Assembly: GCA_949126835.1 (NCBI GenBank)
Contig: OX421500.1
Coordinates: forward strand, 27,183,731-27,247,730
Direction of reading: 5' to 3'
Length of the DNA stretch: 64,000 bases
Source of the DNA: Anisus vortex
Lineage: Eukaryota > Mollusca > Gastropoda > Planorbidae
Shown: positions 17,949 through 50,800 of the stretch, piece after piece
Layout: each line of letters opens with the position of its first letter
Position numbering within the stretch: the first letter of the stretch is position 1
Translations under genes and position numbers: made by a program
Notes under the pieces: generated by a model
Told to the model about the DNA's origin: nothing
Databases searched by the model: none
What the model saw: the letters and a program-made list of their open reading frames with translations, nothing else

Positions 17949-18057
17949 ATGACAAACTTTGTAAATTCCAAATGGGATCCTGATGATCCAACAGACAGCG
18001 AGGTCACAAGTCCCCCTTCACCGTCCTGTATCAGGCGGATTAAAAAGTAAGAGTATA

Positions 18058-18103
<46 letters not shown>

Positions 18104-21100
18104 TTATTTGGGGCACCTCCTTGTTATAGTTATCAACACAGAATAGGTATAGAACATAATGCGCAATCCCTATACGCGCAGTCACTAAAAGTGAGGCTCG
18201 ATCCCGTCATTTTTTTTTCAACGCAAGGCAGCGGTCGCTAGACACGCTACTATAGTAAAATGAGAAAGGATATAGACTAGATCTATACACATTAGCCTAA
18301 GTCTTTTCATTAGAAATGCTTAACTCAATCAGCTAAGTGTGCTAAAACAAAGATCAAAAAAGCTTTTTTATATCTACTCTTAGGGGACGTCCATTAATTA
18401 CGTCAACAGAATAGGGGGGTCTGAAAAATTTTGACAATTGTTGACATAGGGGAGGGGGGGGGGCAGACGTCAACAATGTTACTTTTTATGAAATAAATGA
18501 TGATAAAAATTTATTACAAAATTCTACATTTGTCTTGTACCACTTACATAGCAAACATGTAAAAACATGGTTTTACGTTAATACAAATATATCAATTATG
18601 GAAACTACATATGACACGGCCTTTTTGTGTTCATCTTGTAAGTTTGTAGATCTATGTATGGGTGAAAACTAATGCAATTGTTAGCAAGGCAAAGTGACAG
18701 ACCAATAGTAGAAAACCTCACTTTCGCTGTCTAGCGAGACATGGTGACTGGAATAACAAAGGAACACAAACACACCCACAAACTCTATGCAGAGTACGTT
18801 CAGAAACCCAGTTTTTTGCCGCTCAGTAGACTACATCTAAATTAGGCGCCAGAGACTGGCGTTCGTTATGTAAGCCATGTAGGCCGAAGCGATAGCTGCG
18901 ATTGGCAAAATGACTAAAAACAACAATAGTACCTCTCTGAGACTTTAATTAATGTTTGTAAAGAATTGAATGAGGTGTATTGTATGAATCCAACATGTTT
19001 TTTTTTTTATATTTCCTTCAGAAAAATAATTTGTGACCCACCACATGAAGTCCGAAATACTTATATACCTTTCCTTTTAACATCCCTAATTATGATAAAT
19101 ACACTAATATATTGTTGCTGTCTACGTTAAAATAGGTATAACTGTGAAACATTTAAATTAGATCGATTCGGCTACATAGATCTATTTATTAATTTTTTAG
19201 TTTTAAAATATAATTTTCTGGAAAAATTGTATGTGATAAAAATGTATTAGTATCAGTGGCGTCGCCAGGATTGCTAGGTGTGGGTGGCAAATAGTGCAAG
19301 GTAGGAGAGGCAGGAGACAGAAATAGGGTTGTCATTCACATGGGTGTCAAAAGGAGGACATTGAGAGACAAACAGGAGGACAAAGGAAGACATTGTGTTT
19401 CAATTGAATAGTTTCGCAATAAACCAGTACTCAATACAATTTCATTACAAGAGCTGTCAATAAGTGCTTATTGGTAAACTAAACAAGAAACATTTTTGTT
19501 AAATAACATATTAATTCACTGTAGGCTAAAAGGCAGTTTCCTTAATTTTGGACAACTTTGAAAAATAAACTTTACAGCTCATACAAGAGTCTTTAAGAAG
19601 ACGAATCATTCTTTTCTTGCACAAATGATTATGCACTTGTTTATGAATTATATTCTTAAGAGGTTAATACTAGTCCTATGTTAAATACAAATTATAAAAT
19701 ACTACAAATGCCTGACATTTTAATGGTTTTCAGCATTGCCTGCCGGACGGAGGACAATAGTCTAAAAAAGGGAGGCATTGTCCTCCGTTTGCCGGACGTC
19801 TGGCAACCATAAACAGGGAAGGCAACTATACCGTGTGTGTAATGTGTGTGTGCAAGAAGGCAACTATACCGTGTGTATAATGTAATGTGTGTGCAAGAAG
19901 GCAACTATACCGTGTGTGTAATGTAATGTGTGTGCAAGAAGGCAACTATATCGTGTGTGTAATGTGTGTGTGCAAGAAGGCAACTATACCGTGTGTGTAA
20001 TGTGTGTGTGCAAGAAGGCAACTATACCGTGTGTATAATGTGTGTGTGGAAGAAGGCAACTATACCATGTGTATAATGTGTGTGTGGAAGAAGGCAACTA
20101 TACCGTGTGTATAATGTGTGTGTGCAAGAAGGCAACTATACCTTGTGTATAATGTGTGTGTGCAAGAAGGCAACTATACCGTGTGTAAAATGTGTGTGTG
20201 CAAGAAGGCAACTATACCGTGTGTATAATGTGTGTGTGCAAGAAGACAACTATACCGTGTGTATAATGTGTGTGTGCAAGAAGGCAACTATACCGTGTGT
20301 ATAATGTGTGTGTACAAGAAGGCAACTATACCGTGTGTATAATGTGTGTGTGCAAGAAGGCAACTATACCGTGTGTATAATGTGTGTGTGCAAGAAGGCA
20401 ACTATACCGTGTGTATAATGTGTGTGTGCAAGAAGGCAACTATACCGTGTGTATAATGTGTGTGTGTGCAAGAAGGCAACTATACCGTGTGTATAATGTG
20501 TGTGTGCAAGAAGGCAACTATACCGTGTGTATAATGTGTGTGTGCAAGAAGGCAACTATACCGTGTGTATAATGTGTGTGTGCAAGAAGGCAACTATACC
20601 ATGTGTATAATGTGTGTGTGCAAGAAGGCAACTATACCGTGTGTATAATGTGTGTGTGCAAGAAGGCAACTATACCTTGTGTATAATGTGTGTGTGCAAG
20701 AAGGCAACTATACCGTGTGTATAATGTGTGTGTGCAAGAAGGCAACTATACCGTGTGTATAATGTGTGTGTGCAAGAAGGCAACTATACCGTGTGTATAA
20801 TGTGGGTGTGCAAGAAGGCAACTATACCGTGTGTATTATGTGTGTGTGCAAGAAGGCAACTATACCGTGTGTATAATGTGTGTGTGCAAGAAGGCAAATA
20901 TACCGTGTGTATAATGTGTGTGTGCAAGAAGGCAACTTTACCGTGTGTATAATGTGTGTGTGCAAGAAGGCAACTATACCGTGTGTATAATGTGTGTGTG
21001 CAAGAAGGCAACTATACCGTGTGTATAATGTGTGTGTGCAAGAAGGCAACTATACCGTGTGTATAATGTGTGTGTGCAAGAAGGCAACTATACCGTGTGT

Positions 21101-24100
21101 ATAATGTGTGTGTGCAAGAAGGCAACTATACCGTGTGTATAATGTGTGTGTGCAAGAAGGCAACTATACCGTGTGTATAATGTGTGTGTGCAAGAAGGCA
21201 ACTATACCGTGTGTATAATGTGTGTGTGCAAGAAGGCAACTATACCGCGTATATAATGTGTGTGTGCAAGAAGGCAACTATACCTTGTGTATAATGTGTG
21301 TGTGCAAGAAGGCAACTATACCGTGTGTATAATGTGTGTGTGCAAGAAGGCAACTATACCGTGTGTATAATGTGTGTATAAGAAGGCAACTATACCGTGT
21401 GTATAATGTGTGTGTGCAAGAAGGCAACCATACCGTGTGTATAATGTGTGTGTGCAAGAAAGCAACTATACCGTGTGTATAATGTGTGTGTGCAAGAAGG
21501 CAACTATACCGCGTGTATAATGTGTGTGTGCAAGAAGGCAACTATACCGCGTATATAATGTGTGTGTGCAAGAAGGCAACTATACCGCGTGTATAATGTG
21601 TGTGTGCAAGAAGGCAACTATACCGCGTGTATAATGTGTGTGTGCAAGAAGGCAACTATACCGCGTATATAATGTGTGTGTGCACGAAGGCAACTATACC
21701 GTGTGTATAATGTGTGTGTGCAAGAAGGCAACTATACCGTGTGTATAATGTGTGTGTGCAAGAAGGCAACTATACCTTGTGTATAATGTGTGTGTGCAAG
21801 AAGGCAACTATACCGTGTGTATAATGTGTGTGTGCAAGAAGGCAACTATACCGTGTGTATAATGTGTGTGTGCAAGAAGGCAACTATACCGTGTGTATAA
21901 TGTGTGTGTGCAAGAAGGCAACTATACCGTGTGTATAATGTGTGTGTGCAAGAAGGCAACTATACCGTGTGTATAATGTGTGTGTGCAAGAAGGCAACTA
22001 TACCGTGTGTATAATGTGTGTGTGCAAGAAGGCAACTATACCGTGTGTATAATGTGTGTGTGCAAAAAGGCAACTATACCGTGTGTATAATGTATGTGTG
22101 CAAGAAGGCAACTATACCGTGTGTATAATGTGTGTGTGCAAGAAGGCAACTATACCGTGTGTATAATGTGTGTGTGCAAGAAGGCAACTATACCGTGTGT
22201 ATAATGTGTGTGTGCAAGAAGGCAACTATACCGCGTATATAATGTGTGTGTGCAAGAAGGCAACTATACCGTGTGTATAATGTGTGTGTGCAAGAAGGCA
22301 ACTATACCGCGTGTATAATGTGTGTGTGCAAGAAGGCAACTATACCGCGTGTATAATGTGTGTGTGCAAGAAGGCAACTATACCGTGTGTATAATGTGTG
22401 TGTGCAAGACGGCAACTATACCGCGTTTATAATGTGTGTGTGCAAGAAGGCAACTATACCGTGTGTATAATGTGTGTGTGCAAGAAGGCAAGTATACCGT
22501 GTGTATAATGTGTGTGTGCAAGAAGGCAACTATACCGTGTGTATAATGTGTGTGTGCAAGAAGGCAACTATACCGTGTGTATAATGTGTGTGTGCAAGAA
22601 GGCAACTATACCGTGTGTATAATGTGTGTGTGCAAGAAGGCAACTATACCGTGTGTATAATGTGTGTGTGCAAGAAGGCAACTATACCGTGTGTATAATG
22701 TGTGTGTGCAAGAAGGCAACTATACATTGTGTATAATGTGTGTGTGCAAGAAGGCAACTATACCACGTATATAATGTGTGTGTGCAAGAAGGCAACTATA
22801 CCTTGTGTATAATGTGTGTGTGCAAGAAGGCAACTATACCGTGTGTATAATGTGTGTGTGCAAGTAGGCAACTATACCGTGTGTATAATGTGTGTGTGCA
22901 AGAAGGCAACTATACCGTGTGTATAATGTGTGTGTGCAAGAAGGCAACTATGCCATGTGTATAATGTGTGTGTGCAAGAAGGCAACTATACCGCGTGTAT
23001 AATGTGTGTGTGCAAGAAGGCAACTATACCGCGTATATAATGTGTGTGTGCAAGAAGGCAACTATACCGTGTGTATAATGTGTGTGTGCAAGAAGGCAAC
23101 TATACCGCGTGTATAATGTGTGTGTGCAAGAAGGCAACTATACCGTGTGTATAATGTGTGTGCAAGAAGGCAACTATACCGTGTGTATAATGTATGTGTG
23201 CAAGAAGGCAACTATACCGTGTGTATAATGTGTTTGCAAGAAGGCAACTATACCGTGTGTATAATGTGTGTGTGCAAGAAGGCAACTATTCCGTGTGTAT
23301 AATGTGTGTGTGCAAGAAGGCAACTATACCGTGTGTATAATGTGTGTGTGCAAGAAGGCATCTATACCGTGTGTATAATGTGTGTGTGCAAGAAGGCAAC
23401 TATACCGCGTGTATAATGTGTGTGTGCAAGAAGGCAACTATACCGCGTGTATAATGTGTGTGTGCAAGAAGGCAACTATACCGTGTGTATAATGTGTGTG
23501 TGCAAGACGGCAACTATTTCGCGTTTATAATGTGTGTGTGCAAGAAGGCAACTATACCGTGTGTATAATGTGTGTGTGCAAGAAGGCAACTATACCGTGT
23601 GTATAATGTGTGTGTGCAAGAAGGCAACTATACCGTGTGTATAATGTGTGTGTGCAAGAAGGCAACTATACTGTGTGTATAATGTGTGTGTGCAAGAAGG
23701 CAACTATACCGTGTGTATAATGTGTGTGTGCAAGAAGGCAACTATACCGTGTGTATAATGTGTGTGTGCAAGAAGGCAACTATACCGTGTAAATAATGTG
23801 TGTGTGCAAGAAGGCAACTATACCGTGTGTATAATGTGTGTGTGCAAGAAGGCAACTATACCGTGTGTATAATGTGTGTGTGCAAGAAGGCAACTATACC
23901 GTGTGTATAATGTGTGTGTGCAAGAAGGCAACTATACCGTGTGTATAATGTGTGTGTGCAAGAAGGCAACTATACCGTGTGTATAATGTGTGTGTGCAAG
24001 AAGGCAACTATACCGTGTGTATAATGTGTGTGTGCAAGAAGGCAACTATACCGCGTATATAATGTGTGTGTGCAAAAAGGCAACTATACCTTGTGTATAA

Positions 24101-27100
24101 TGTGTGTGTGCAAGAAGGCAACTATACCGTGTGTATAATGTGTGTGTGCAAGTAGGCAACTATACCGTGTGTATAATGTGTGTGTGCAAGAAGGCAACTA
24201 TACCGTGTGTATAATGTGTGTGTGCAAGAAGGCAACTATACCATGTGTATAATGTGTGTGTGCAAGAAGGCAACTATACCGTGTGTATAATGTGTGTGTG
24301 CAAGAAGGCAACTATACCGCGTATATAATGTGTGTGTGCAAGAAGGCAACTATACCGTGTGTATAATGTGTGTGTGCAAGAAGGCAACTATACTGCGTGT
24401 ATAATGTGTGTGTGCAAGAAGGCAACTATACCGTGTGTATAATGTGTGTGCAAGAAGGCAACTATACCGTGTGTATAATGTGTGTGTGCAAGAAGGCAAC
24501 TATACCGTGTGTATAATGTGTTTGCAAGAAGGCAACTATACCGTGTGTATAATGTGTGTGTGCAAGAAGGCAACTATACCGTGTGTATAATGTGTGTGTG
24601 CAAGAAGGCAACTATACCGTGTGTATAATGTGTGTGTGCAAGAAGGCAACTATACCGTGTGTATAATGTGTGTGTGCAAGAAGGCAACTATACCGTGTGT
24701 ATAATGTGTGCGTGCAAGAAGGCAACTATACCGTGTGTATAATGTGTGTGTGCAAGAAGGCAACTATACCGTGTGTATAATGTGTGTGTGCAAGAAGGCA
24801 ACTATACCGTGTGTATAATGTGTGTGTGCAAGAAGGCAACTATACCGTGTGTATAATGTGTGTGTGCAAGAAGGCAACTATACCGTGTGTATAATGTGTG
24901 TGTGCAAGAAGGCAACTATACCGCGTATATAATGTGTGTGTGCAAGAAGGCAACTATAACTTGTGTATAATGTGTGTGTGCAAGAAGGCAACTATACCGT
25001 GTGTATAATGTGTGTGTGCAAGAAGGCAACTATACCGTGTGTATAATGTGTGTATAAGAAGGCAACTATACCGTGTGTATAATGTGTGTGTGCAAGAAGG
25101 CAACCATACCGTGTGTATAATGTGTGTGTGCAAGAAAGCAACTATACCGTGTGTATAATGTGTGTGTGCAAGAAGGCAACTATACCGCGTGTATAATGTG
25201 TGTGTGCAAGAAGGCAACTATACCGCGTATATAATGTGTGTGTTTGCAAGAAGGCAACTATACCGCGTGTATAATGTGTGTGTGCAAGAAGGCAACTATA
25301 CCGCGTGTATAATGTGTGTGTGCAAGAAGGCAACTATACCGCGTATATAATGTGTGTGTGCACGAAGGCAACTATACCGTGTGTATAATGTGTGTGTGCA
25401 AGAAGGCAACTATACCGTGTGTATAATGTGTGTGTGCAAGAAGGCAACTATACCTTGTGTATAATGTGTGTGTGCAAGAAGGCAACTATACCGTGTGTAT
25501 AATGTGTGTGTGCAAGAAGGCAACTATACCGTGTGTATAATGTGTGTGTGCAAGAAGGCAACTATACCGTGTGTATAATGTGTGTGTGCAAGAAGGCAAC
25601 TATACCGTGTGTATAATGTGTGTGTGCAAGAAGGCAACTATACCGTGTGTATAATGTGTGTGTGCAAGAAGGCAACTATACCGTGTGTATAATGTGTGTG
25701 TGCAAGAAGGCAACTATACCGTGTGTATAATGTGTGTGTGCAAAAAGGCAACTATACCGTGTGTATAATGTGTGTGTGCAAGAAGGCAACTATATCGCGT
25801 ATATAATGTGTGTGTGCAAGAAGGCAACTATACCGTGTGTATAATGTGTGTGTGCAAGAAGGCAACTATACCGCGTGTATAATGTGTGTGTGCAAGAAGG
25901 CAACTATACCGCGTGTATAATGTGTGTGTGCAAGAAGGCAACTATACCGTGTGTATAATGTGTGTGTGCAAGACGGCAACTATACCGCGTTTATAATGTG
26001 TGTGTGCAAGAAGGCAACTATACCGTGTGTATAATGTGTGTGTGCAAGAAGGCAACTATACCGTGTGTATAATGTGTGTGTGCAAGAAGGCAACTATACC
26101 GTGTGTATAATGTGTGTGTGCAAGAAGGCAACTATACCGTGTGTATAATGTGTGTGTGCAAGAAGGCAACTATACCGTGTGTATAATGTGTGTGTGCAAG
26201 AAGGCAACTATACCGTGTGTATAATGTGTGTGTGCAAGAAGGCAACTATACCGTGTGTATAATGTGTGTGTGCAAGAAGGCAACTATACATTGTGTATAA
26301 TGTGTGTGTGCAAGAAGGCAACTATACCGCGTATATAATGTGTGTGTGCAAGAAGGCAACTATACCTTGTGTATAATGTGTGTGTGCAAGAAGGCAACTA
26401 TACCGTGTGTATAATGTGTTTGCAAGAAGGCAACTATACCGTGTGTATAATGTGTGTGTGCAAGAAGGCAACTATACCGTGTGTATAATGTGTGTGTGCA
26501 AGAAGGCAACTATACCGTGTGTATAATGTGTGTGTGCAAGAAGGCAACTATACCGTGTGTATAATGTGTGTGTGCAAGAAGGCAACTATACCGCGTGTAT
26601 AATGTGTGTGTGCAAGAAGGCAACTATACCGCGTGTATAATGTGTGTGTGCAAGAAGGCAACTATACCGTGTGTATAATGTGTGTGTGCAAGACGGCAAC
26701 TATACCGCGTTTATAATGTGTGTGTGCAAGAAGGCAACTATACCGTGTGTATGTGTGTGTGCAAGAAGGCAACTATACCGTGTGTATAATGTGTGTGTGC
26801 AAGAAGGCAACTATACCGTGTGTATAATGTGTGTGTGCAAGAAGGCAACTATACCGTGTGTATAATGTGTGTGTGCAAGAAGGCAACTATACCGTGTGTA
26901 TAATGTGTGTGTGCAAGAAGGCAACTATACCGTGTGTATAATGTGTGTGTGCAAGAAGGCAACTATACCGTGTGTATAATGTGTGTGTGCAAGAAGGCAA
27001 CTATACCGTGTGTATAATGTGTGTGTGCAAGAAGGCAACTATACCGTGTGTATAATGTGTGTGTGCAAGAAGGCAACTATACCGTGTGTATAATGTGTGT

Positions 27101-30100
27101 GTGCAAGAAGGCAACTATACCGTGTGTATAATGTGTGTGTGCAAGAAGGCAACTATACCGTGTGTATAATGTGTGTGTGCAAGAAGGCAACTATACCGTG
27201 TGTATAATGTGTGTGTGCAAGAAGGCAACTATACCGCGTATATAATGTGTGTGTGCAAGAAGGCAACTATACCTTGTGTATAATGTGTGTGTGCAAGAAG
27301 GCAACTATACCGTGTGTATAATGTGTGTGTGCAAGTAGGCAACTATACCGTGTGTATAATGTGTGTGTGCAAGAAGGCAACTATACCGTGTGTATAATGT
27401 GTGTGTGCAAGAAGGCAACTATACCATGTGTATAATGTGTGTGTGCAAGAAGGCAACTATACCGTGTGTATAATGTGTGTGTGCAAGAAGGCAACTATAC
27501 CGCGTATATAATGTGTGTGTGCAAGAAGGCAACTATACCGTGTGTATAATGTGTGTGTGCAAAAAGGCAACTATACCGCGTGTATAATGTGTGTGTGCAA
27601 GAAGGCAACTATACCGTGTGTATAATGTGTGTGCAAGAAGGCAACTATACCGTGTGTATAATGTGTGTGTGCAAGAAGGCAACTATACCGTGTGTATAAT
27701 GTGTTTGCAAGAAGGCAACTATACCGTGTGTATAATGTGTGTGTGCAAGAAGGCAACTATACCGTGTGTATAATGTGTGTGTGCAAGAAGGCAACTATAC
27801 CGTGTGTATAATGTGTGTGTGCAAGAAGGCAACTATACCGTGTGTATAATGTGTGTGTGCAAGAAGGCAACTATACCGTGTGTATAATGTGTGTGTGCAA
27901 GAAGGCAACTATACCGCGTGTATAATGTGTGTGTGCAAGAAGGCAACTATACCGTGTGTATAATGTGTGTGTGCAAGAAGGCAACTATACCGTGTGTATA
28001 ATGTGTGTGTGCAAGAAGGCAACTATACCGTGTGTATAATGTGTGTGTGCAAGAAGGCAACTATACCGCGTGTATAATGTGTGTGTGCAAGAAGGCAACT
28101 ATACCGTGTGTATAATGTGTGTGTGCAAGACGGCAACTATACCACGTTTATAATGTGTGTGTGCAAGAAGGCAACTATACCGTGTGTATAATGTGTGTGT
28201 GCAAGAAGGCAACTATACTGTGTGTATAATGTGTGTGTGCAAGAAGGCAACTATACCGTGTGTATAATGTGTGTGTGCAAGAAGGCAACTATACCATGTG
28301 TGTAATGTAATGTGTGTGCAAGAAGGCAACTATATCGTGTGTGTAATGTGTGTGTGCAAGAAGGCAACTATACCGTGTGTGTAATGTGTGTGTGCAAGAA
28401 GGCAACTATACCGTGTGTATAATGTGTGTGTGGAAGAAGGCAACTATACCATGTGTATAATGTGTGTGTGGAAGAAGGCAACTATACCGTGTGTATAATG
28501 TGTGTGTGCAAGAAGGCAACTATACCATGTGTGTAATGTAATGTGTGTGCAAGAAGGCAACTATATCGTGTGTGTAATGTGTGTGTGCAAGAAGGCAACT
28601 ATACCGTGTGTGTAATGTGTGTGTGCAAGAAGGCAACTATACCGTGTGTATAATGTGTGTGTGCAAGAAGGCAACTATACCTTGTGTATAATGTGTGTGT
28701 GCAAGAAGGCAACTATACCGTGTGTAAAATGTGTGTGTGCAAGAAGGCAACTATACCGTGTGTATAATGTGTGTGTGCAAGAAGGCAACTATACCATGTG
28801 TATAATGTGTGTGTGCAAGAAGGCAACTATACCGTGTGTATAATGTGTGTGTGCAAGAAGGCAACTATACCTTGTGTATAATGTGTGTGTGCAAGAAGGC
28901 AACTATACCGTGTGTATAATGTGTGTGTGCAAGAAGGCAACTATACCGCGTGTATAATGTGTGTGTGCAAGAAGGCAACTATACCGTGTGTATAATGTGT
29001 GTGTGCAAGAAGGCAACTATACCTTGTGTATAATGTGTGTGTGCAAGAAGGCAACTATACCGTGTGTATAATGTGGGTGTGCAAGAAGGCAACTATACCG
29101 TGTGTATAATGTGTGTGTGCAAAAAGGCAACTATACCGTGTGTATAATGTGTGTGTGCAAGAAGGCAAATATACCGTGTGTATAATGTGTGTGTGCAAGA
29201 AGGCAACTTTACCGTGTGTATAATGTGTGTGTGCAAGAAGGCAACTATACCGTGTGTATAATGTGTGTGTGCAAGAAAGCAACTATACCGTGTGTATAAT
29301 GTGTGTGTGCAAGAAGGCAACTATACCGCGTGTATAATGTGTGTGTGCAAGAAGGCAACTATACCGCGTATATAATGTGTGTGTGCAAGAAGGCAACTAT
29401 ACCGTGTGTATAATGTGTGTGTGCAAGAAGGCAACTATACCGCGTGTATAATGTGTGTGTGCAAGAAGGCAACTATACCGCGTATATAATGTGTGTGTGC
29501 ACGAAGGCAACTATACCGTGTGTATAATGTGTGTGTGCAAGAAGGCAACTATACCGTGTGTATATTGTGTGTGTGCAAGAAGGCAACTATACCTTGTGTA
29601 TAATGTGTGTGTGCAAGAAGGCAACTATACCGTGTGTATAATGTGTATGTGCAAGAAGGCAACTTTACCGTGTGTATAATGTGTGTGTGCAAGAAGGCAA
29701 CTATACCGTGTGTATAATGTGTGTGTGCAAGAAGGCAACTATACCGTGTGTATAATGTGTGTGTGCAAGAAGGCAACTATACCGTGTGTATAATGTGTGT
29801 GTGCAAGAAGGCAACTATACCGTGTGTATAATGTGTGTGTGCAAGAAGGCAACTATACCGTGTGTATAATGTGTGTGTGCAAGAAGGCAACTATACCGTG
29901 TGTATAATGTGTGTGTGCAAAAAGGCAACTATACCGTGTGTATAATGTGTGTGTGCAAGAAGGCAACTATACCGTGTGTATAATGTGTGTGTGCAAGAAG
30001 GCAACTATACCGTGTGTATAATGTGTGTGTGCAAGAAGGCAACTATACCGTGTGTATAATGTGTGTGTGCAAGAAGGCAACTATACCGTGTGTATAATGT

Positions 30101-33100
30101 GTGTGTGCAAGAAGGCAACTATACCGTGTGTATAATGTGTGTGTGCAAGAAGGCAACTATACCGTGTGTATAATGTGTGTGTGCAAGAAGGCAACTATAC
30201 CGCGTATATAATGTGTATGTGCAAGAAGGCAACTATACCGCGTGTATAATGTGTATGTGCAAGAAGGCAACTATACCGCGTGTATAATGTGTGTGTGCAA
30301 GAAGGCAACTATACCGCGTGTATAATGTGTGTGTGCAAGAAGGCAACTATACCGTGTGTATAATGTGTGTGCAAGAAGGCAACTATACCGTGTGTATAAT
30401 GTGTGTGTGCAAGAAGGCAACTATACCGTGTGTATAATGTGTGTGTGCAAGAAGGCAACTATACCGTGTGTATAATGTGTGTGTGCAAGAAGGCAACTAT
30501 ACCGTGTGTATAATGTGTGTGTGCAAGAAGGCAACTATACCGTGTGTATAATGTGTGTGTGCAAGAAGGCAACTATACCGTGTGTATAATGTGTGTGTGC
30601 AAGAAGGCAACTATACCGTGTGTATAATGTGTGTGTGCAAGAAGGCAACTATACCGTGTGTATAATGTGTGTGTGCAAGAAGGCAACTATACCGTGTGTA
30701 TAATGTGTGTGTGCAAGAAGGCAACTTTACCGTGTGTATAATGTGTGTGTGCAAGAAGGCAACTATACCGTGTGTATAATGTGTATGCAAGAAGGCAACT
30801 ATACCGTGTATATAATGTGTGTATGCAAGAAGGCAACTATACCGTGTGTATAATGTGTGTGTGCAAGAAGGCAACTATACCGTGTGTATAATGTGTGTGT
30901 GCAAGAAGGCAACTATACCGTGTGTATAATGTGTGTGTGCAAGAAGGCAACTTTACCGTGTGTATAATGTGTGTGTGCAAGAAGGCAACTATACCGTGTG
31001 TATAATGTGTATGCAAGAAGGCAACTATACCGTGTATATAATGTGTGTATGCAAGAAGGCAACTATACCGTGTGTATAATGTGTGTGTGCAAGAAGGCAA
31101 CTATACCGTGTGTATAATGTGTGTGTGCAAGAAGGCAACTATACCGTGTGTATAATGTGTGTGTGCAAGAAGGCAACTATACCGTGTGTATAATGTGTGT
31201 GTGCAAGAAGGCAACTATACCGTGTGTATAATGTGTGTGTGCAAGAAGGCAACTATACCGTGTGTATAATGTGTGTGTGCAAGAAGGCAACGATACCGCG
31301 TGTATAATGTGTGTGTGCAAGAAGGCAACTATACCGTGTGTATAATGTGTGTGTGCAAGAAGGCAACTATACCGTGTGTATAATGTGTGTGTGCAAGAAG
31401 GCAACTATACCGTGTGTATAATGTGTGTGTGCAAGAAGGCAACTATACCGTGTGTATAATGTGTGTGTGCTAGAAGGCAACTATACCGTGTGTATAATGT
31501 GTGTGTGCAAGAAGGCAACTATACCGTGTGTATAATGTGTGTGTGCAAGAAGGCAACTATACCGTGTGTATAATGTGTGTGTGCAAGAAGGCAACTATAC
31601 CGTGTGTATAATGTGTGTGTGCAAGAAGGCAACTATACCGTGTGTATAATGTGTGTGTGCAAGAAGGCAACTATACCATGTGTATAATGTGTGTGTGCAA
31701 GAAGGCAACTATACCGTGTGTATAATGTGTGTGTGCAAGAAGGCAACTATACCGTGTGTATAATGTGTGTGTGCAAGAAGGCAACTATACCGTGTGTATA
31801 ATGTGTGTGTGCAAGAAGGCAACTATACCGCGTATATAATGTGTGTGTGCAAGAAGGCAACTATACCTTGTGTATAATGTGTGTGTGCAAGAAGGCAACT
31901 ATACCTTGTGTATAATGTGTGTGTGCAAGAAGGCAACTATACCGTGTGTATAATGTGTGTGTGCAAGAAGGCAACTATACCGTGTGTATAATGTGTGTGT
32001 GCAAGAAGGCAACTATACCGTGTGTATAATGTGTGTGTGCAAGAAGGCAACTATACCGTGTGTATAATGTGTGTGTGCAAGAAGGCAACTATACCGCGTA
32101 TATAATGTGTGTGTGCAAGAAGGCAACTATACCGCGTGTATAATGTGTGTGTGCAAGAAGGCAACTATACCGCGTGTATAATGTGTGTGTGCAAGAAGGC
32201 AACTATACCGTGTGTATAATGTGTGTGCAAGAAGGCAACTATACCGTGTGTATAATGTGTGTGTGCAAGAAGGCAACTATACCGTGTGTATAATGTGTTT
32301 GCAAGAAGGCAACTATACCATGTGTATAATGTGTGTGTGCAAGAAGGCAACTATACCGTGTGTATAATGTGTGTGTGCAAGAAGGCAACTATACCGTGTG
32401 TATAATGTGTTTGTGCAAGAAGGCAACTATACCGTGTGTATAATGTGTGTGTGCAAGAAGGCAACTATACCGTGTGTATAATGTGTGTGTGCAAGAAGGC
32501 AACTATACCGTGTGTATAATGTGTGTGTGCAAGAAGGCAACTATACCGTGTGTATAATGTGTGTGTGCAAGAAGGCAACTATACCGTGTGTATAATGTGT
32601 GTGTGCAAGAAGACAACTATACCGTGTGTATAATGTGTGTGTGCAAGAAGGCAACTTTACCGTGTGTATAATGTGTGTGTGCAAGAAGGCAACTATACCG
32701 TGTGTATAATGTGTGTGCAAGAAGGCAACTATACCGTGTATATAATGTGTGTATGCAAGAAGGCAACTATCCCGTCTGTATAATGTGTGTGTGCAAGAAG
32801 GCAACTATACCGTGTGTATAATGTGTGTGTGCAAGAAGGCAACTATACCGTGTGTATAATGTGTGTGTGCAAGAAGGCAACTATACCGTGTGTATAATGT
32901 GTGTGTGCAAGAAGGCAACTATACCGTGTGTATAATGTGTGTGTGCAAGAAGGCAACTATACCGTGTGTATAATGTGTGTGTGCAAGAAGGCAACTATAC
33001 CGTGTGTATAATGTGTGTGTGCAAGAAGGCAACTATACCGTGTGTATAATGTGGGTGTGCAAGAAGGCAACAATACCGTGTGTATAATGTGTGTGTGCAA

Positions 33101-36100
33101 GAAGGCAACTATACCGTGTGTATAATGTGTGTGTGTGCAAGAAGGCAACTATACCGTGTGTATAATGTGTGTGTGCAAGAAGGCAACTATACCGTGTGTA
33201 TAATGTGTGTGTGCAAGAAGGCAACTTTACCGTGTGTATAATGTGTGTGTGCAAGAAGGCAACTATACCGTGTGTATAATGTGTGTGTGCAAGAAGGCAA
33301 CTATACCGTGTGTATAATGTGTGTGTGCAAGAAGGCAACTATACCGTGTGTATAATGTGTGTGTGCAAGAAGGCAACTATACCGCGTGTATAATGTGTGT
33401 GTGCAAGAAGGCAACTATACCTTGTGTATAATGTGTGTGTGCAAGAAGGCAACTATACCGTGTGTATAATGTGTGTGTGCAAGAAGGCAACTATACCGTG
33501 TGTATAATGTGTGTGTGCAAGAAGGCAACTATACCGTGTGTATAATGTGTGTGTGCAAGAAGGCAACTATACCGTGTGTATAATGTGTGTGTGCAAGAAG
33601 GCAACTATACCGTGTGTATAATGTGTGTGTGCAAGAAGGCAACTATACCGTGTGTATAATGTGTGTGCAAGAAGGCAACTATACCGTGTATATAATGTGT
33701 GTGTGCAAGAAGGCAACTATACCGTGTGTATAATGTGTGTGTGCAAGAAGGCAACTATACCGTGTGTATAATGTGTGTGTGCAAGAAGGCAACTATACCG
33801 TGTGTATAATGTGTGTGTGCAAGAAGGCAACTATACCGTGTGTATAATGTGTGTATGCAAGAAGGAATAGTGAACATATAGTTAAACTAGAGGGCTAATT
33901 TACAACTGGTGCACAATTTTCCCCTAAACTAGTTAAAAATTAACAATGTACCAAAAGCTCAATTGTGAAACGTTAAAAAAGATTAGGTCTAAATATTTCT
34001 ATGAAAAGAACAATAGTAAACAGAAATATTATTAAGATCATCGGATTGAAAAAACAATGTGGAAGGGGCAAGTTGGGAGGCGTAGGAACCATGTTTCACC
34101 CCCTCGTGGCTACGCCTATGAGAGTTAAAGTCAATTTATAATCTTTTAAACAAGTTTTAAAATGTATTACAATTAACTATAGTATAGACCATAGGTTCTC
34201 AACCTTTTTCGGCTCACCGCCCCGTTTTACATTTTTATTCCGCTCACCGCCCCCCAACGTAATTTTAGCGGAAACATTTGTTAATTAAAGGGAGATAATT
34301 AACCCTTTTCATTTGAATTAATATTTCAATTTGTTTTGCATTTCTAACTTTGAAATGATATGATAGAACTGTAAAAATTATTTGAAAACTTTATAAATAT
34401 TATATGACTAAAGAATTTATATGAATATTTTCAAGCATTTCAATTACTACCCAGTTTGTATGATTACTACGTATCTATACCGCTCAGCTATTGTGGTTAC
34501 CTCTTTACGAAAGATTCAAACGCATTAAAGGACATCTCGGTAAAACATCAAAAGAGTAATATAAGAGTAATATTAGCAGATGTTAAGGCGACAGTCCGGT
34601 GAACCAACTATAAGACGAGACGGCCGCATACCATATTTGCCAAATATTGACCCCTCCCCCCCTACTTCATCGAAAAGTCATTGCGATTATTATTTACTGT
34701 TCAATAATATGTATGTCTACTATTGGGAGATATCAGATATTTAGTAGCACTTGCGTTTACATCATATTTCATCCAAAAACTAATTGATTCAAATAGCTGA
34801 GTTGTTGAAATTATAGCATGTACGTATGTACCGCCCACTTTTCTTCATCGCCCCCCAATCGCCCCCGGGAATGTTATCGCCCCCCTAAAGCTTCTAATCG
34901 CCCCCTGGGGGGGCGATATCGCCCCCGTTGAGAACCTATGGTATAGACCTTTCCGTTTCAAATCTATTATATACATAAAAGCCAACGTCTAAAATATTGT
35001 TACTTGTTATATGGGGGGGGGAGGGGGTAACAAACTGTTGACGTAATTATATAGGGGGGATCTCTAAAAGTTTGACAGTTGTTGACAATGGGGAGGAAGG
35101 AGGTAAAAATTGCCTAAAAATTGTTGACGTAATTAATGGACGTCCTCTTAGCAATCTTAGGACTAAAGCAAGGCTACTAATATTATGTAATCTGAGTTAA
35201 TATGAGATTGTTATACCTTTTGAACTTACCGTTGTTTATCATTTATGATTATGGAATCAGGCTTATTTGTACGATAATCAATCGTTTTCGCATCATTGTT
35301 GCAGTTTATTAAGTTTTGGTAACTTTTGACTGAAACATTAACTCTGGGTATTCGGTGTGTAGATTTGAAGAAAAGACATTGTAAATAAGCATAAATATAC
35401 AGCTGCGTTTAAACAGTAGGGCGTCGGTATTACTTCCGGAAACAAAAAAAAAATGCTATTGCGAATTCTGTTCTATACCTATTCTGTGGTTATCAAGCGA
35501 ATTCTATTAGGTCATCTTGAGTCAGAAAATGATATGGGCAATAATTAAATGATTGAAGACGAATTCAACACATTACCAAATAAAGCAGTAATTAATATAA
35601 TCTTTAAAATAAATGTCTTTAGTCGACATATATATATATATATTTACATAAGATACAGTTAACTCTTAAAAGCCTTTTGTTTTCACGTTTTGACTGAATT
35701 ATTTTCTCTTGAATTTTTTTTTAAACTGGGTACTATTAGAAAATATTTGTTTAGGCCTATCTAATATTTAAAAAAAATTACTGTATCTATTTAGTATCAT
35801 TTTGTAGGGAATCGAAATACCCTTTTAGTGATATAAATATTTAGTTATTTTAGATTTTTATATTTCTGTATTTTTTGTTAAAAATCTTACCTTTGTTTTA
35901 AAGACACCAAAAACGACAAACAAAAAACAGAACAAAAACATTTTTATTTATAAAATTCACCAACACCGTTTTGTAATTATGTTAAATAGAAAGAAAATTT
36001 ATTAACCTTAAATATGAAACTATATATGTTTGGTTTCTTTTTGTTAATTAATAATATTTCCTTGCGAAATTGACAAAGGGTATATTATTAGAATTTTACA

Positions 36101-39100
36101 ATTGGGCTATCAGCTAATCAATCAGCTGACTGTAAAACGCAGGTGATGATTGAGAAATGAGTAGGCTAGCTTCAGTTTCCGAAAGACTTGATAAAATCAA
36201 ATCGTTGTCACTGTCGTCTAATTTCATTGTGAAAATCAGAATTTAAAAAATGCCCTATAGGCCTACGGCACTCCGTCGAAGCGTTGGTTCTACTCAGCCT
36301 ATAATGACCTATCCATTTTCAACATGTCTACGCTAAAAATGCTTTAACTAAAAAAAATTAGAGTTACTTCGCTTGGTTTTTCATCCGGGAATGTGTATTA
36401 AATTAAACTGTAATTATGTTTTAAAATTATATTTATTTTGGTAACAGAAATATTTCTGAAACATATTTAATTTGTCAATATTTTCTGCTCCAGCGATATA
36501 TCAGACATTTACTCAGAGCCTCCACCAGGTCTGTGTGTTCTGCCTGACCCCAATAATATTACAATAGTAAGTTTAAACTGTGCTTCATTACTAAACCAAA
36601 GTTAGTTATTATGCCATCTGTATGTTATTTCATTACCATTTTCAATTGAGGATTTTATTTTTATTGTATTCGAATTTTAAAATATGATATATTTTTAAGA
36701 AGTTGCATGTTTTACCACTTATTTAAAATTGACAAAAGCAAAACATCTTTTATAGTAAGTTAACATTTATTTATCATTGATCTTCTTTCTTCTTAGATTC
36801 ACGCTCTGCTAACTGGGCCGTTTGACACACCATATGAGGGTGGTTTTTTTTACTTCCTCATTCGATTTCCGGCAGAATATCCCATCAGCCCACCTAGAGT
36901 TCGACTAATGACCACAGGCAATGGCACAGTAAGATTCAACCCAAACTTGTACAAATATGGAAAAGTCTGTCTTAGCATTCTGGGGTGAGTTTTCAAAAAT
37001 TATTGTACTATGTAATATTACCATATTTTTAAAATATTTTTTTTTAGATGTAAACTCTAATTAACTTAGTCTTAATAGTCTTATATTAATAGTTTATACT
37101 TTATCACATACAAGAATTATTGTTTTTCACAAACTTAGACTAGAGCTATTTAATATATTGCAGCACTTGGGAAGGTCCATCGTGGAGTCCAGCACTGACA
37201 TTGTCCACTGTCCTCATTTCCATCCAGTCCTTGATGAATGAGAAGCCCTACCACAATGAACCTGGATATGAACACGTAGGTGTTTATTTTCTTTTATTGT
37301 TTATGCCGACCAGAACATGTTCATTTTGTTACACAAGAGATATACTTTACTTTATAGATTACTTTTAGTTTATTACATTATTACTTTATCTTGTTAGTTA
37401 TAACATTTATGTATTTCATTTAGGCATGTTTAATTTGACTGTCATTCTTTTTAAAAATTTAGGAACGAACATCCGGTGACTCCAAACATTACAATACAAT
37501 TATCCAGCATGAAACAATACGTGTAGCTGTATGTGATATGATTGAAGGCAACATAAATATTCCTGATACTTTAAGGTTTGTATGTGTCTGCATTGGCAGA
37601 GCCATTTTGAATTCTTTGTTGGGCTTGGGGTATTTTTTGGAACCTACAATTGGCCAATCAAAGTAGCAGAAACTTAGTCAGTCAGTTTTATTGAAGTGAT
37701 GCTCAACCAGTAAATAATCTGAACTACTCTGCTGTCTACAAGTATGTTGTAGCAATGTCTACACTATGTAAATTGTGCTAGAATTAAAATATATGTAGAT
37801 ACATGTAAATTTTTTTTTTAGAATTTACTAAATGGATTTTGAATTTTGTTTTGTATGGTAGTTACATGCTTTCCAGTAGGCCAGTAGGTATCTTTCAAGT
37901 TCTTACAGCATTTCAGCAAGATAATATTCACAATTTAGAATCTAGTACCATGTAATCATAATATGCATCACCTAAACATGCTTTCAAGCTGCTTGATGCT
38001 TTTCTGGCTAATCTGCTTTAGATCTTATTTTGACTGCATTGAGGATTGCATTGTATGATTACTTGACTTTGAACTGATGTTGATTCGACAGCTTAGTCAG
38101 TTTTAAAAGACTCATATCTTGGTCCTAGGTGTAATCTTGTTGTGGTGTAGAGAGACCACTGTGAATTTTTGAAGTTGTTGTATGCAGTGTTGAAATGTTT
38201 TGTTTTATTTTTCTACCATCTTCAAAGCTGTACACTTGGATTTAATATACCCTTAAACATTGAAGCAGATAAGTAAAGAATGCAATACTTTTCTATACAG
38301 AAGAAACGTCTGTAACATATTATAAGATACAATTAATGATCATTGATTCAACTTATTTTCCAAAGGTATTTCACTTGGGAAGACGGGGAGTGTGGTACAG
38401 ATGAAAGCGTTAATTATGACATTAAATATTTTAGGTGATTTGCTTCCAAAGAGAAATGCCTGTTGTTTCAATAACTTATCACAGTTGGTAAAGAACGATA
38501 ATTTTAAAATATTCAAATTTCATTATTAAAGGCTTGTTGTTTCAATAATTTATCACAGTTAGTAAAGAACGATAATTTTAAAATATTCAAATTTTATTAT
38601 TAAAGGCTTGTTGTTTCAATAATTTATCACAGTAAGTAAAGAACGATAATTTTAAAATATTCAAATTTCATTATTAAATGCTTGTTGTTTCAATAACTTA
38701 TCACAGTTAGTAGAGAACGATAATTTTAAAATATTCAAATTTTATTATTAAATGCTTGTTGTTTCAATAACTTATCACAGTTAGTAAAGAACAATAATTT
38801 TAAAATATTCAAATTTCATTATTAAAGGCTTGTTGTTTCAATAATTTATCACAGTTAGTAAAGAACGATAATTTTAAAATATTCAAATTTCATTATTAAA
38901 TGCCTGTTGTTTCAATAACTTATCACAGTTAGTAAAGAACGATAATTTTAAAATATTCAAATTTCATTTTTAAAGGCTTGTTGTTTCAATAACTTATCAC
39001 AGTTAGTAAAGAACGATAAATTTAAAATATTCAAATTTCATTATTAAATGCTTGTTGTTTCAATAATTTATCACAGTTAGTAAAGAACGATAATTTTAAA

Positions 39101-42100
39101 ATATTCAAATTTCATTATTAAAGGCTAGTTGTTTCAATAATTTATCACAGTTAGTAAAGAACGATAATTTTAAAATATTCAAATTTCATTATTAAAGGCT
39201 TGTTGTTTCAATAATTTATCACAGTTAGTAAAGAACGATAATTTTAAAATATTCAAATTTCATTATTAAAGGCTTGTTGTTCCAATAATTTATCACAGTT
39301 AGTAAAGAACGATAATTTTAAAATATTCAAATTTCATTATTAAAGGCTAGTTGTTTCAATAATTTATCACAGTTAGTAAAGAACGATAATTTTAAAATAT
39401 TCAAATTTCATTATTAAATGCTTGTTGTTTCAACAATTTATCACAGTTAGTAAAGAACGATAATTTTTAAATATTCAAATTTCATTATTAAATCCTTGTT
39501 GGGGTACGGTGGCCACGCATTCGACTGACAATAGTTGAACACATAGTTATATGTTGTAATTAAGGTTAGCCTAGATTATAGTTGAACACACAGTTATATG
39601 TTGTAATTAAGGTTAGCCTAGTTGAACACACAGTTATATGTTGTAATTAAGGTTAGCCTAGTTGAACACACAGTTATATGTTGTAATTAAGGTTAGCCTA
39701 GTTGAACACATAGTTATATGTTGTAATTAAGGTTAGCCTAGATTATAGTTGAACACACAGTTATATGTTGTAATTAAGGTTAGCCTAGTTGAACACACAG
39801 TTATATGTTGTAATTAAGGTTAGCCTAGTTGAACACAGAGGTATAATTTGAATATAAATTTCTTTTGAGTTTATCAAATTTTTAAATACCTGTTAGTTTT
39901 ACTTCATTAAGTTCCATCAAGAATCTTAAGCATTATTTTATTTTTACAAAGTCCATCTCAAAATTGTTGAATGTTTATATTTTATCATAAAGCTTCTGTA
40001 GGCTAGTTTCTTAGGAATTTATTTCTTGTTCCTTTAAAATCAACAGTTAGTATGACATACAGTCATTAAAATTGTAATGTTCCTTGAAGGAAGAATGATT
40101 CATGAGTAGATCCATTTCATTTCTATATTATTCAACACTGACCTGAGTAAGAAAATAAATTCAAAGTTTCCTTTCAGATAAAATCGAGAAGAACATTTAT
40201 AAAATTTGAAATGTTGGTACTGTTAATAGTACAGGGTGGGCCAATAAAATGTTATCACTTTTTGTATTCTTACAATTTTTAAAATTACATAGTCTAGTTT
40301 TTAGTTTCACTTTCAAGAATATTAACTACGAAACACTGAATTCTCATCCCAATGGATCCAAATCAATATACTGTGGAGGACATAGTGAAGATCGTGAAAG
40401 CATATTTGAAATTAAAATCGGAACCCACACTCAGCGATGATTAACAATTGACTTTCCGGGAAGAAATCAGACGTCTTCTGCAGAAGATCAGGAAAACAGG
40501 ACATGTGACCACCGATAGACGCATACTGAACACAGACCTTCATCTTTTTCCCTACAGAATTCAGATTTTGCAAGCTCAAACAGCATAAAATAGAGAAGAG
40601 AGACTAACCTTTTGTAGAAACATCAGTCAACGCATCGAAGATCACCCCGTTTTTTACCTGATTTTTTTTCAGCGATAAAGCACTTTAACACCTCAGTGCA
40701 CATGTTAATAGACAGAATATAAGATTCTGGACCAAACCAAACCTTACCATTATGTTATTCACCCCTTGAGTTTTGAAAACTTGTGTATGATTAAAAAGTG
40801 GTAACATTTTATTGGCCCACCCTGTAATTCAACCTTTCAATGAAGATTTAAAAATTCAAAGTTAATCAGGGGTTTCAGTGCTGCTAAAATCTTTTGACAA
40901 ACAAAGCATTAAAATTTGCTTAAAAGCATGAAATTTGTTTTATTAAATTCCGAAAACAACTTTATAAGACCTTTTTTTTCCAATGAAATATCGAAGCAAC
41001 TTATAGACGAAGCTCTTCGTATAAAACTAATGTAGAATTTGTGTTCATACTTATCGTTGGTAGTTGCGGGACACACTTCCACTTGACGTCTGCATGGCAA
41101 TAATGGCATCCATCTTTAATTTTTCAAAATTTCTTTATCTTTAGTTCAATATTAGTTTTAGAAAAACTGTCCAAATATTCTGATCAAAGATGGTCTAAAT
41201 GAAAGTTCATATTAGAGTTCTTCTTTATCTGTAATTTTCTTCTTTTTCTTTGCCGCTACACCGCTGCCACCATTTATGTTAGGGCTTATATTCTTTTATG
41301 TTATTATTGGTAGTGTGTTATAAGCATCTTAACATTTTATTCTAGTTTCCTTACTGTTTATCTTCATACAAATTCCGAGTCATCATAATATGCAAACTTG
41401 AAATGATGAAGAATGACTTCAAAGACTACTTACTTCAATGTTTATTAAATGAACACAAACTCATATAGATGAACAATCATATACTTTGATTGAGGAAACT
41501 TTAATACATATCCATATAAATATAATAACTTCTTTTGTACTTTAATTTTCCATTCTATCCTTGTCTCTAACTCACGTCACATCCGTACTAAACAACATTC
41601 CTATTTTTCACAACAACCATTTTCATTCAAGATTTCAAACCAAATCTATATTTAAATCTACCCAGCTCTGATTTGTGCCTGACACTAGTTGGGGTAAAGT
41701 AAAGGCGGCTGGGAATTGTGCTGGCCACACATCCCCTCATATGCCATGGCCACATAAACTGGTGAACACTGCTTCACCAGCCCTATGATCAATTGGTTCG
41801 AAGGGTACTTTACTATGTCTTGATTTAGAATGATTACTCTTATCATGATTCAGTTTTTTTCCTTTTTATTAACGGACGAGTAAACTGAAATCAAAATTAG
41901 TTCTGAAAAATTATGTCATTTTGACAAATTACCTAACTATGGAATTTCAACAAACTAATAAGACATAATTTTACAGCTTGTTTTATTTCAATTCTGATTG
42001 GCTATTTCAGAGCTGTGATGGAGAGCTCCTTCCTTGACTATTATAAATACTATGTTCAAGTCTGTAAGTCTCACCTTCGCCTTGATGGAACAGACATGAA

Positions 42101-47837: not shown

Positions 47838-50800
47838 TCATCGTTGGTTTTCCGATTCTGTGGTGCCGTTGTTGTCTAGCCTTGCCTTGATGGACTTCAA
47901 ACGCTTGAGTGAAGACTTGAAGTTAAACTTGGGTCGGTTATCCCCAAATGGATCCTGGGAAATTAAAGGCAGAGCTTTATTTTCTTATGTTCTAAAAAAG
48001 TGTATATCTGCATAGGTATGAAGGTCTGGCAAGTAAAGAAAGTCCTGGGTTTGAATCCTGGCAAAGGCTAGGATATTTACAGTTGCTAGACGGTGTCCCT
48101 GTCTATCCAGCTCGGATAAGTAACTGATCATTGTTGGAAAAAAAGTAAAATCGGCTGAGCATTTTGCTGGCCACACAATTTCCTTGTAAAACACTGTTGC
48201 TCTTGCCCTATAGATCAAATTGGACTGAAGGAGATACCTTACTTCTATGTCACTTAAGTGTTCAGTGCTTTCTTCTCAGTTATCATCAATTTCCGAAAAA
48301 GGCCTAAATTAAATTTCAGAGAAATACCTTTCTATAATGTGAATCAAAGTTTGATTTGAACTTTTTAGTTCAAGAAAAATACCCAAAAAAAAAAATTTTA
48401 AGTTATATGAAATCCTGTAGAAAGACATCAGTACGTTCCATTTTACTTTGCTCCAAATCAAACATGTGTATTATTGTATGTACACTTACATTCATGTTCT
48501 TTCCATCAAGGTGAAGGTGAGTCTCACAGACTTGTACATAGTGTTTATAGTAGTCAAAGAAAGAGCTCTCCATAACAGCTCTGAAATAGCCAATCAAATT
48601 TAAAATAAAACAAGCTGTAAAATTACGTCTTATTCGTAGTTAGTTAGTTGAAAATTCATAGTTAAGTAATTTGTCAAAATTATTTAATTTTTCAGAACTA
48701 AATTTGATTTCAGTTCACTTGTCCGTTAATAAAATGAAAAAACTGAATCATGATAAGAGTAATCATTCTAAATCAAGACATAGTAAAGTACCCTTTGGAC
48801 CAATTGATCACAGAGCTGGTGAAGCAGAGTTCACCAGTTTCTGTGGCCATGGCATATGAGGGAATGTGTGGCCAGCACAATGTCCAGCCGCCTTTACTTT
48901 ACCCCAGCTAGTGTCAGGCACAAATAAGAGCTGGGCAGACTTAGGGTCACTCTCAAATCCCGGGAACAAATCCTAGCCTGCATCAGGATTCAAACCTAGA
49001 ACTCTTGGATTGCAGGTCGAATGCGCTGCCGCTCGGCCACTGTACCCCAACAAGCCTTTAATAATGAAATTTGAATATTTTAAAATTATTGTTCTTTACT
49101 AACTGTGATAAGTTATTGAAACAATAAGCATTTAATAATGAAATTTGAATATTTTAAATTTATCGTTCTTTTCTAACTGTAATAAGTTATTGAAACAACA
49201 AGCATTTAATAATGAAATTTGAATATTTTAAATTTATCGTTCTTTACTAACTGTGATAAGTTATTGAAACAACAAGCATTTAATAATGAAATTTGAATAT
49301 TTTAAAATTATCGTTCTTTACTAACTGTGATAAGTTATTGAAACAATAGACATTTCTCTGAGAAAGCAAATCCCCTAAAATATTTAAAGTCAATATTAAC
49401 GCTTTCATCTGCACCACCCTCCCCGTCTTCCCAAGTGAAATACATTTGGAAAATAAGTTGAATCAATTATCATTAATTGTATCTTATAATATGTTACAGA
49501 TGCTACTTCTGCATAGCAAAGTATTGCATTCTTTGCTTATCTGCTTCAATGTTCAAGTATATATTAAATCCAAGTGTACAGCTTTGAAGATGGTAGAAAA
49601 ATAAAACAAAAAATTGCAACACTGCATACAACAACTTCAAAAATTCACAGTGGTCTCTCTACACCACAACAAGATTACACCTAGGACCAAGATATGAGTC
49701 TTTTAAAACTGACTAAGCTGTCGAATCAACATCAGTTCAAAGTCAAGTAATCATACAATGCAATCCTCAATGCAGTCAAGATAAGATCTAAAGCAGATGA
49801 GCCAGAAAAGCATCAAGCAGCTTGAAAGCATGTTTAGGTGATGCATATTATGATTACATGGTACTAGATTCTAAATTGTGAATATTATCTTGCTGAAATG
49901 CTGTAAGAACTTGAAAGATACCTACTGGCCTACTGGAAAGCATGTAATATTTTAATTCTAGCACAATTTACAAAGTGTAGTCATTGCTACAACATACTTG
50001 TAGACAGCAGAGTAGCTCAGTTTATTCACTGGCTTATCATCACTTGAATATAACTGACTCACTAAATTTCTGCTACTTTGATTGGCTTTAAGAAACACTC
50101 CAAGCCCAACAAAGAATTCAAAATGGCTCTGCCAATGCAAACACATACAAACCTTAAAGTATCAGGAATATTTAAGTTTTTTTCAATCATATCACATACA
50201 GCTACACGTATTGTTTCATGCTGGATAATTATATTGTAACGTTTGGAGTCACCGGATTTTCGTTCCTAATTTTGTTTAAAGAATGATGGTCAAATTAAAC
50301 ATGCCTAAATAAAATACATTAATGTTTTAACTAACAAGATAAAGTAATAATGTAATAAACTAAAAGTTATCTACAAGGTAACGTGTATCTCTTGTGTAAA
50401 GAAATGAACATGTTCTGGTCGGCATGAACATTAAAAGAAAATAAACACCTACATGTTCATATCCAGGTTCATTGTGGTAGGGCTTCTCATTCATCAAGGA
50501 CTGGATAGAAAGGAGGACAGTAGACAATGTTTGTGCTGGACTCCACGAAGGACCTTCCCAAGTGCTGCAATATATTACATAGCTTTTTGTAAAAAAAAAA
50601 AAAAATTAATTCTGGTATGCGATAAATAAAATATTAAGATAAGACTAAGGTAATTAGAGTTTAGATTACTTTAGATCTTAAAAAAAAATAATTAAAAAAA
50701 ATTATTAATATTACATAGTACAAAAAGATGTAAAATAAAAAGCATATTTTTTAGAAACTTACCCGAGAATGCTAAGACAGACTTTTCCATTTTCGTACAA

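What the first reader, a model, noticed from the sequence alone, without database searches (positions are those of the whole stretch)
18129..35496. Nested transposons: 17-kb insertion in intron 1 of the intact UBE2Z copy with two sets of target duplications
Outer ends CACAGAATAGGTATAGAAC with GTTATCAA duplication; inside, ends GGGACGTCCATTAATTACG with TCTTAG duplication; inside that, the 14-kb satellite and a hAT MITE with its own 8-bp duplication. Each layer is delimited by its own flanks, so the order of events can be read directly.
Basis: seen in the sequence. Interest (0 to 1): 0.75.

Follow-up and report, generated by a model that had tools for sequence, protein, structure and literature searches.

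The report
Satellite born inside a nested transposon
In the first intron of an animal's UBE2Z gene one transposon sits inside another, and a 38-letter stretch found once in most sampled copies of the inner one's subfamily has multiplied here to about 370 tandem copies, which shows how a satellite repeat can start.

Summary
The nesting is real. Outer layer: a MITE (net 584 bp) with 8-bp duplication GTTATCAA; UBE2Z paralogue A in the same window holds the empty site. The joined empty inner site is found elsewhere in the genome (439 matches up to 3 mismatches, at least 21 of them in one array). A hAT-like MITE lies inside the inner element.

The satellite is the finding. Its 38-bp unit is the inner subfamily's own sequence, bounded in many copies by GAAGG. 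Of 65 right-junction copies, 45 show one unit (whole or decayed), 15 show 2 to about 370 (this window is longest), 5 were not examined. These 15 account for about as many tandem junctions (1082) as the genome search counted (1040). Units within a locus are more alike than between loci (3.4% vs 7.1%), so growth or homogenisation was local. One outer-MITE copy did the same with a 42-bp segment. Transposon-born satellites are known; this is a fully graded example.

The parts
17949..18046 (+). coding part of exon 1 of UBE2Z copy B (ATG to donor GTAAGAG)
   Evidence: read; weak tblastn piece
18047..36493 (+). intron 1 of UBE2Z copy B
   Evidence: splice sites read
18129..18136 (+). outer target duplication, left copy GTTATCAA
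   Evidence: single GTTGTCAA in paralogue A
18137..18382 (+). outer MITE, left part, begins CACAGAATAGGTATAGAAC
18380..18382 (+). inner target duplication, left copy TTA
18383..35147 (+). inner TIR element, 16,765 bp, begins GGGGACGTCC, ends GGACGTCCTC
18383..19817 (+). left arm of inner element
   Evidence: aligned to other copies
19321..19810 (+). approximate extent of a small inserted segment (called B here) between two ACAG motifs next to the array; present in the array-bearing copies whose left side was read
   Evidence: not at that point in L038 or L043
19818..33865 (+). 38-bp satellite, about 370 units plus closing GAAGG
33866..35147 (+). right arm of inner element, interrupted by a MITE
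34182..34189 (+). 8-bp duplication GTATAGAC, left copy
34190..34940 (+). hAT-like MITE, ends CATAGGTTCTCAAC / GTTGAGAACCTATG
   Evidence: missing at this point in the copies aligned
34941..34948 (+). 8-bp duplication GTATAGAC, right copy
35148..35150 (+). inner target duplication, right copy TTA
35151..35488 (+). outer MITE, right part, ends GTTCTATACCTATTCTGTG
35489..35496 (+). outer target duplication, right copy GTTATCAA
6942..6949 (-). empty outer site in UBE2Z copy A: single GTTGTCAA, both flanks align to copy B

Best explanation
A UBE2Z gene was duplicated locally. A MITE of 584 bp inserted into intron 1 of copy B (8-bp duplication). A non-autonomous TIR element with a 3-bp duplication and unknown transposase inserted into that MITE at TTA. 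A hAT-like MITE is inserted in the inner element's right arm. A 38-bp internal segment of the inner element, bounded by the direct repeat GAAGG, was tandemly duplicated and grew to about 370 units; the same segment grew to other lengths in at least 14 other insertions, largely each in its own place. Shown: the layers, the empty sites, that the unit is native single-copy sequence of the element, the graded series, and that units are more alike within than between loci. Inferred: that the first duplication used the GAAGG microhomology (slippage or microhomology-mediated repair), that later growth was by slippage or unequal exchange, and that the layers arrived here one after another. No function is indicated; the likely effect is a longer intron.
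For: Empty outer site in paralogue A. Joined empty inner site: 215+224 matches up to 3 mismatches, control 0/0, 39 exact of which 14 are units of one array; aligned across the join in L070 and L146. No second unit upstream in 40 of 40 short pieces from copies outside the tandem list. Array begins at the same element position in 6 of 6 array copies read on the left, and ends within 2 bases of the same position in 12 of 13 read on the right (L094 is the exception, poorly aligned). Lengths from junction spacing. 1082 internal junctions expected in 15 elements, 1040 counted genome-wide up to 2 mismatches, control 0/0. Within-locus unit divergence 3.4%, between 7.1%, 0 of 200 label shuffles as low, 13 loci. 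In 13 of 13 arrays units differ less from their own consensus (0.3-4.3%) than that element's flank differs from the flank majority (2.6-10.8%; window 1.5% vs 2.6%). Of 20 family regions taken in C1 order, 13 hold the segment, none in tandem; 10 of the 13 hold an older form with extra bases inside. A second case: 22.2 copies of a 42-bp segment of the outer MITE in L146, bounded by ATAT in the single-copy form.
Against: 15 non-consensus unit variants are shared by two or more loci, so some arrays may have moved as arrays. The flank tree is weakly supported and six single-unit flanks align badly, so it does not settle this. GAAGG is not intact in every single-unit copy. For the arrays of 24-106 units (bar L081) only end pieces were read; lengths rest on junction spacing. 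No reads were available to verify array length.
Confidence: 0.65

Rival explanations
1. One source element gained a multi-unit array, transposed with it, and the copies then grew or shrank.
For: Unusual unit variants are shared by some loci, e.g. TATATTG in L081 and L094, GCGTATATAATG in the window and L089.
Against: Within-locus likeness; variants found in arrays also occur in single-unit copies, e.g. GTATGCAA in L100, L117, L119, L121; array copies do not form one group in the flank tree, though support is weak.
Confidence: 0.2
2. Repeat number changes when the element moves (gap repair after excision, slipping at GAAGG), not by change in place.
For: Both cases found lie inside mobile elements, but only these two sequences were searched.
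Against: No excision product or allele pair was seen; ordinary slippage or unequal exchange explains the same data.
Confidence: 0.1
3. The element captured a pre-existing satellite and most copies contracted to one unit.
For: A review reports that capture was proposed for miDNA4 of Xenopus (PMC12628747).
Against: Older relatives hold the segment once, with extra bases inside; tandem junctions are accounted for inside the element.
Confidence: 0.03
4. The long array is an assembly artefact.
For: No reads could be inspected.
Against: Both ends join the right element flanks; 62 distinct unit types; 14 other arrays of varied length are assembled alike.
Confidence: 0.02

Closest known systems
miDNA4 MITE of Xenopus tropicalis (as told in reviews PMC12628747, first part of one section, and PMC9659126, passages; the original paper was not seen)
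   Same: MITE whose internal satellite occurs as one monomer or as arrays of varied number; short direct repeats of 5 bp or more flank it.
   Different: Said to be Tc1/mariner; here the duplication is 3 bp and not TA. The flanking repeats there are AT-rich, here GAAGG.
Tetris / TIR-220 of Drosophila virilis (PMC4079207, abstract and one Discussion section)
   Same: A DNA transposon supplying tandem repeats that grow to kb-size arrays; unequal crossing-over proposed.
   Different: Repeats of about 220 bp lie in the terminal inverted repeats; here the unit is 38 bp, internal, and single in most sampled copies.
Retrotransposon-derived satellites of Lathyrus sativus (PMC7004042, abstract)
   Same: Short arrays inside dispersed elements that occasionally expand.
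   Different: LTR-retrotransposons, expanding mainly at primary constrictions; here a DNA element, this copy in an intron.
Cg_HINE Helentrons of Crassostrea gigas (PMC7492417, abstract)
   Same: Satellite-like tandem repeats carried inside non-autonomous DNA elements.
   Different: Helentrons with central repeats; here inverted ends with target duplications and usually one unit.

Membership tests
MITE-borne satellite of the miDNA4 kind | unit single or in variable arrays at one internal position | tested here: met
MITE-borne satellite of the miDNA4 kind | short direct repeats at the unit borders | tested here: met
   GAAGG in many copies, decayed in others; ATAT in the outer-MITE case
MITE-borne satellite of the miDNA4 kind | classical arrays that have lost the element ends | tested here: inconclusive
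   none was seen: 1040 junctions counted vs 1082 expected in 15 elements, but one search lists only its first 100 places
Tc1/mariner (inner element) | TA duplication | tested here: not met
   3-bp duplications such as AAA, CAA, TTG, ACT
PIF/Harbinger (inner element) | 3-bp duplication TWA (recalled) | tested here: not met
   3 bp, but TTT, AAA, CAA, AAG, TTG, ACT occur
CACTA (inner element) | ends CACTA/G (recalled) | tested here: not met
   ends GGGGACGTCC
any named superfamily (inner element) | own transposase | tested here: inconclusive
   the hAT dimerisation domain in L043 (E 1.6e-9) lies in a separate nested insertion with GGTAGGAA on both sides; no transposase of its own was recognised in the 20 regions
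hAT (outer MITE) | 8-bp target duplication | tested here: met
   7 of 28 scored regions exact (5 insertions), 17 with 1 and 4 with 2 mismatches, most of these sharing one site
hAT (outer MITE) | related transposase | not tested
   no autonomous copy was sought
Tetris-like foldback element | tandem repeats inside the inverted repeats | tested here: not met
   array begins 1.4 kb from the left end

The most novel reading that the evidence does not exclude
In this genome satellites start again and again, independently, from single-copy pieces of DNA transposons wherever a 4-5 bp direct repeat bounds a segment of about 40 bp: two families with different ends and duplications, one lying inside the other in this window, each do it, and unit number belongs to the insertion rather than to the lineage of the element.
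Probability: 0.45. Interest if true: 0.65.

Novelty: new member of a known kind. Interest (0 to 1): 0.5.

Why it matters
How a satellite begins is usually hidden because the one-unit state is lost. Here the one-unit ancestor, an older form, and arrays of 2, 6, 7 and up to about 370 units coexist at one position of one element in one assembly, so models (slippage at a microhomology, unequal exchange, growth in place or spread by transposition) can be tested by counting. It also shows an intron lengthened by 17 kb without breaking the reading frame of the neighbouring exons.

Tried and rejected
Rejected: the 6-bp inner duplication. Rejected: a hAT transposase as the inner family's own; the region in L043 is a separate insertion with its own 8-bp duplication. 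The pieces of L043 and L040 gave no Pfam family at E 0.001, and at E up to 10 only the hAT dimerisation domain was convincing. Dropped before counting arrays: 3 of 18 places, which lie inside the window's array; the junction pair at C15:27.44 Mb, 801 bp apart beyond one unit, because the piece L115 shows unrelated sequence inside the unit. Not examined: 5 of 65 right-junction copies. Three of the 45 singles (C9:1.87, C10:40.99, C18:7.96 Mb) rest on junction spacing alone (one has 6 extra bases). Weak: the flank tree. The unit cutting loses an end unit in some loci (369 in the window against 370; 1 in L084 and L087). In one search the alignment printed nothing (unsupported gap costs); redone. 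In one search the outer join lacked one base (35151); corrected. One search failed (stop codons in a guessed exon) and was not repeated. Searches for prior description in Biomphalaria found none in the titles and abstracts listed; the species itself is not identified.

Full report
What was checked. The window is C9:27,183,731-27,247,730 of an unnamed 863-Mb assembly of 159 contigs. The inner duplication is not 6 bp: the family makes 3-bp duplications (18 of 19 scored regions, 0 of 19 at 4 bp or more, mispaired control 25 of 342).

Host gene. Three UBE2Z copies lie in the window: A on the minus strand (pieces from 7041 down to 2327), B on the plus strand (18015 to 42859), C on the minus strand (54642 to 47877). 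Exon 3 of B matches UBE2Z best among solved structures. B's coding pieces read open with splice signals. The insertion makes up most of B's 18.4-kb intron 1.

Empty sites. Both flanks of the outer insertion align to copy A, which has one GTTGTCAA (one base different from GTTATCAA) and no insertion; copy C is different there. Joining the outer MITE's two parts across TTA gives 584 bp. The joint sequence TATCTACTCTTAGCAATCTTAGGACTAAAG matches 215+224 genome places up to 3 mismatches (backward-pattern control 0/0), 39 exactly; only the first 100 were listed. At least 21 of the matches are units of one array. L070 aligns across the join (72% overall, incomplete copy) and L146 aligns across it at 88% over 287 bp. 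So the outer element existed without the inner one.

Families. The inner end core has 1578+1564 matches (control 2/4), the outer end 2388+2216 (control 3/1). Many outer copies lie in clusters about 2 kb apart that share one insertion site, so they were multiplied by another process and are not independent insertions. The inner family's transposase was not found.

The satellite is the inner element's own sequence. In 20 family regions fetched in C1 order, 13 hold the segment and none has it in tandem; 3 of the 13 (L035, L036, L045) have the 38-bp form, 10 an older form with extra bases between the border motifs. The 38-bp form reads GAAGG, 33 bases, GAAGG. A pattern for the right junction finds 28+37 copies (control 0/0), one for the left junction 33+32 (control 0/0), and one that needs two or more units at the right end finds 18 places, of which 3 are inside the window array, leaving 15 elements.

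Graded series. Of the 50 remaining right-junction copies, 40 were fetched as 116-bp pieces: 40 of 40 have no second unit directly upstream, though the unit is decayed or cut in several. Two more are single in L036 and L045 and three by junction spacing; five were not examined. The 15 tandem elements have 2, 2, 6, 7, 24, 25, 29, 42-43, 46, 61, 81, 82, 106, 214 and about 370 units by junction spacing. Tandem Repeats Finder agrees where the whole array was read (L084 and L087 2.1, L093 6.1, L092 7.2, L081 81.1, window 370.1); for the others only end pieces were read. The array sits at one element position: 6 of 6 on the left, 12 of 13 on the right.

Confinement. The junction between two tandem units was counted 712+328 times (control 0/0); 15 elements of these lengths predict 1082. 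The window alone gives 368. The shortfall fits diverged units (for example 8 of about 14 counted in L091). A small number of arrays elsewhere cannot be excluded, since only 100 places were listed.

Local growth. Thirteen loci with at least five full-length units: within-locus divergence 3.4%, between 7.1%, 0 of 200 label shuffles as low. In 13 of 13 the units differ less from their own consensus than the element flank differs from the flank majority (several rest on few units). The window array shows shared runs of variant units at a shift of 97 units (12 shared variant units; median over shifts 1), a sign of duplication of long blocks. Against: 15 variants are shared between loci, and the flank tree is weak.

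A second case. At C5:8,574,665-8,575,534, 21 matches of the outer MITE's internal sequence run at 42-bp steps. The fetched copy L146 has both outer ends and 22.2 units of 42 bp, 97% matches; in the single-copy form the segment is bounded by ATAT on both sides. It is the very place where the inner element landed in the window.

Reading. The order outer MITE, inner element, hAT-like MITE is best supported, but a composite could have moved in as one piece; nesting of the same two elements at other loci was not searched for. The satellite probably began by slippage at GAAGG and grew in place by slippage or unequal exchange. The draft of this report put 0.85 on the whole statement; since the rivals for the growth step are not excluded, 0.65 is given.

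Known ground. Satellites from MITE interiors, with single monomers, arrays and bordering microhomologies, are described for miDNA4 (reviews), and growth of arrays inside transposons for Tetris and Lathyrus retrotransposons (abstract). So this is a new member of a known kind, with an unusually full series. Species: not known. The assembly's size and contig lengths resemble Biomphalaria glabrata (842.6 Mb, 18 chromosomes; PMC10903818, passages), which is only a guess.

Noticed in passing
window 38454-39501 and 49048-49346: The same 74-bp repeat forms 14 copies beside UBE2Z copy B and 4 copies (other strand) beside the inverted copy C, so a paralogous array differs in length after the gene duplication.
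   Followed up: no
window 1-1776: 72-bp tandem array of 24.8 copies, cut by the window start, next to UBE2Z copy A.
   Followed up: no
L146 (C5:8574300-8575900): Outer-family MITE with both ends and 22.2 copies of a 42-bp internal segment.
   Followed up: yes
L052-L060, L064, L065, L069, L071, L072, L074, L075, L077, L080: Outer-family copies sharing one insertion site (TATACGTC-like), many in clusters with steps of about 2 kb: an insertion multiplied inside a larger repeat.
   Followed up: partly
window about 19321-19810: A segment with weak inverted ends (TAGGGTTGTCA / TGGCAACCAT) between ACAG motifs abuts the array in the array-bearing subfamily; related sequence lies at another point in other family members.
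   Followed up: partly
L038 2881-3051 and L048 1-195: Inner-family copies inserted at tandem arrays of 45 bp and 25 bp.
   Followed up: no
L043 about 1862-4860: Nested hAT insertion with a decayed transposase and 8-bp duplication GGTAGGAA inside an inner-family copy.
   Followed up: partly
L035 3677-8223: Two long open frames that look like a Ty3/gypsy-type retroelement (named from recall) inside an inner-family copy.
   Followed up: no
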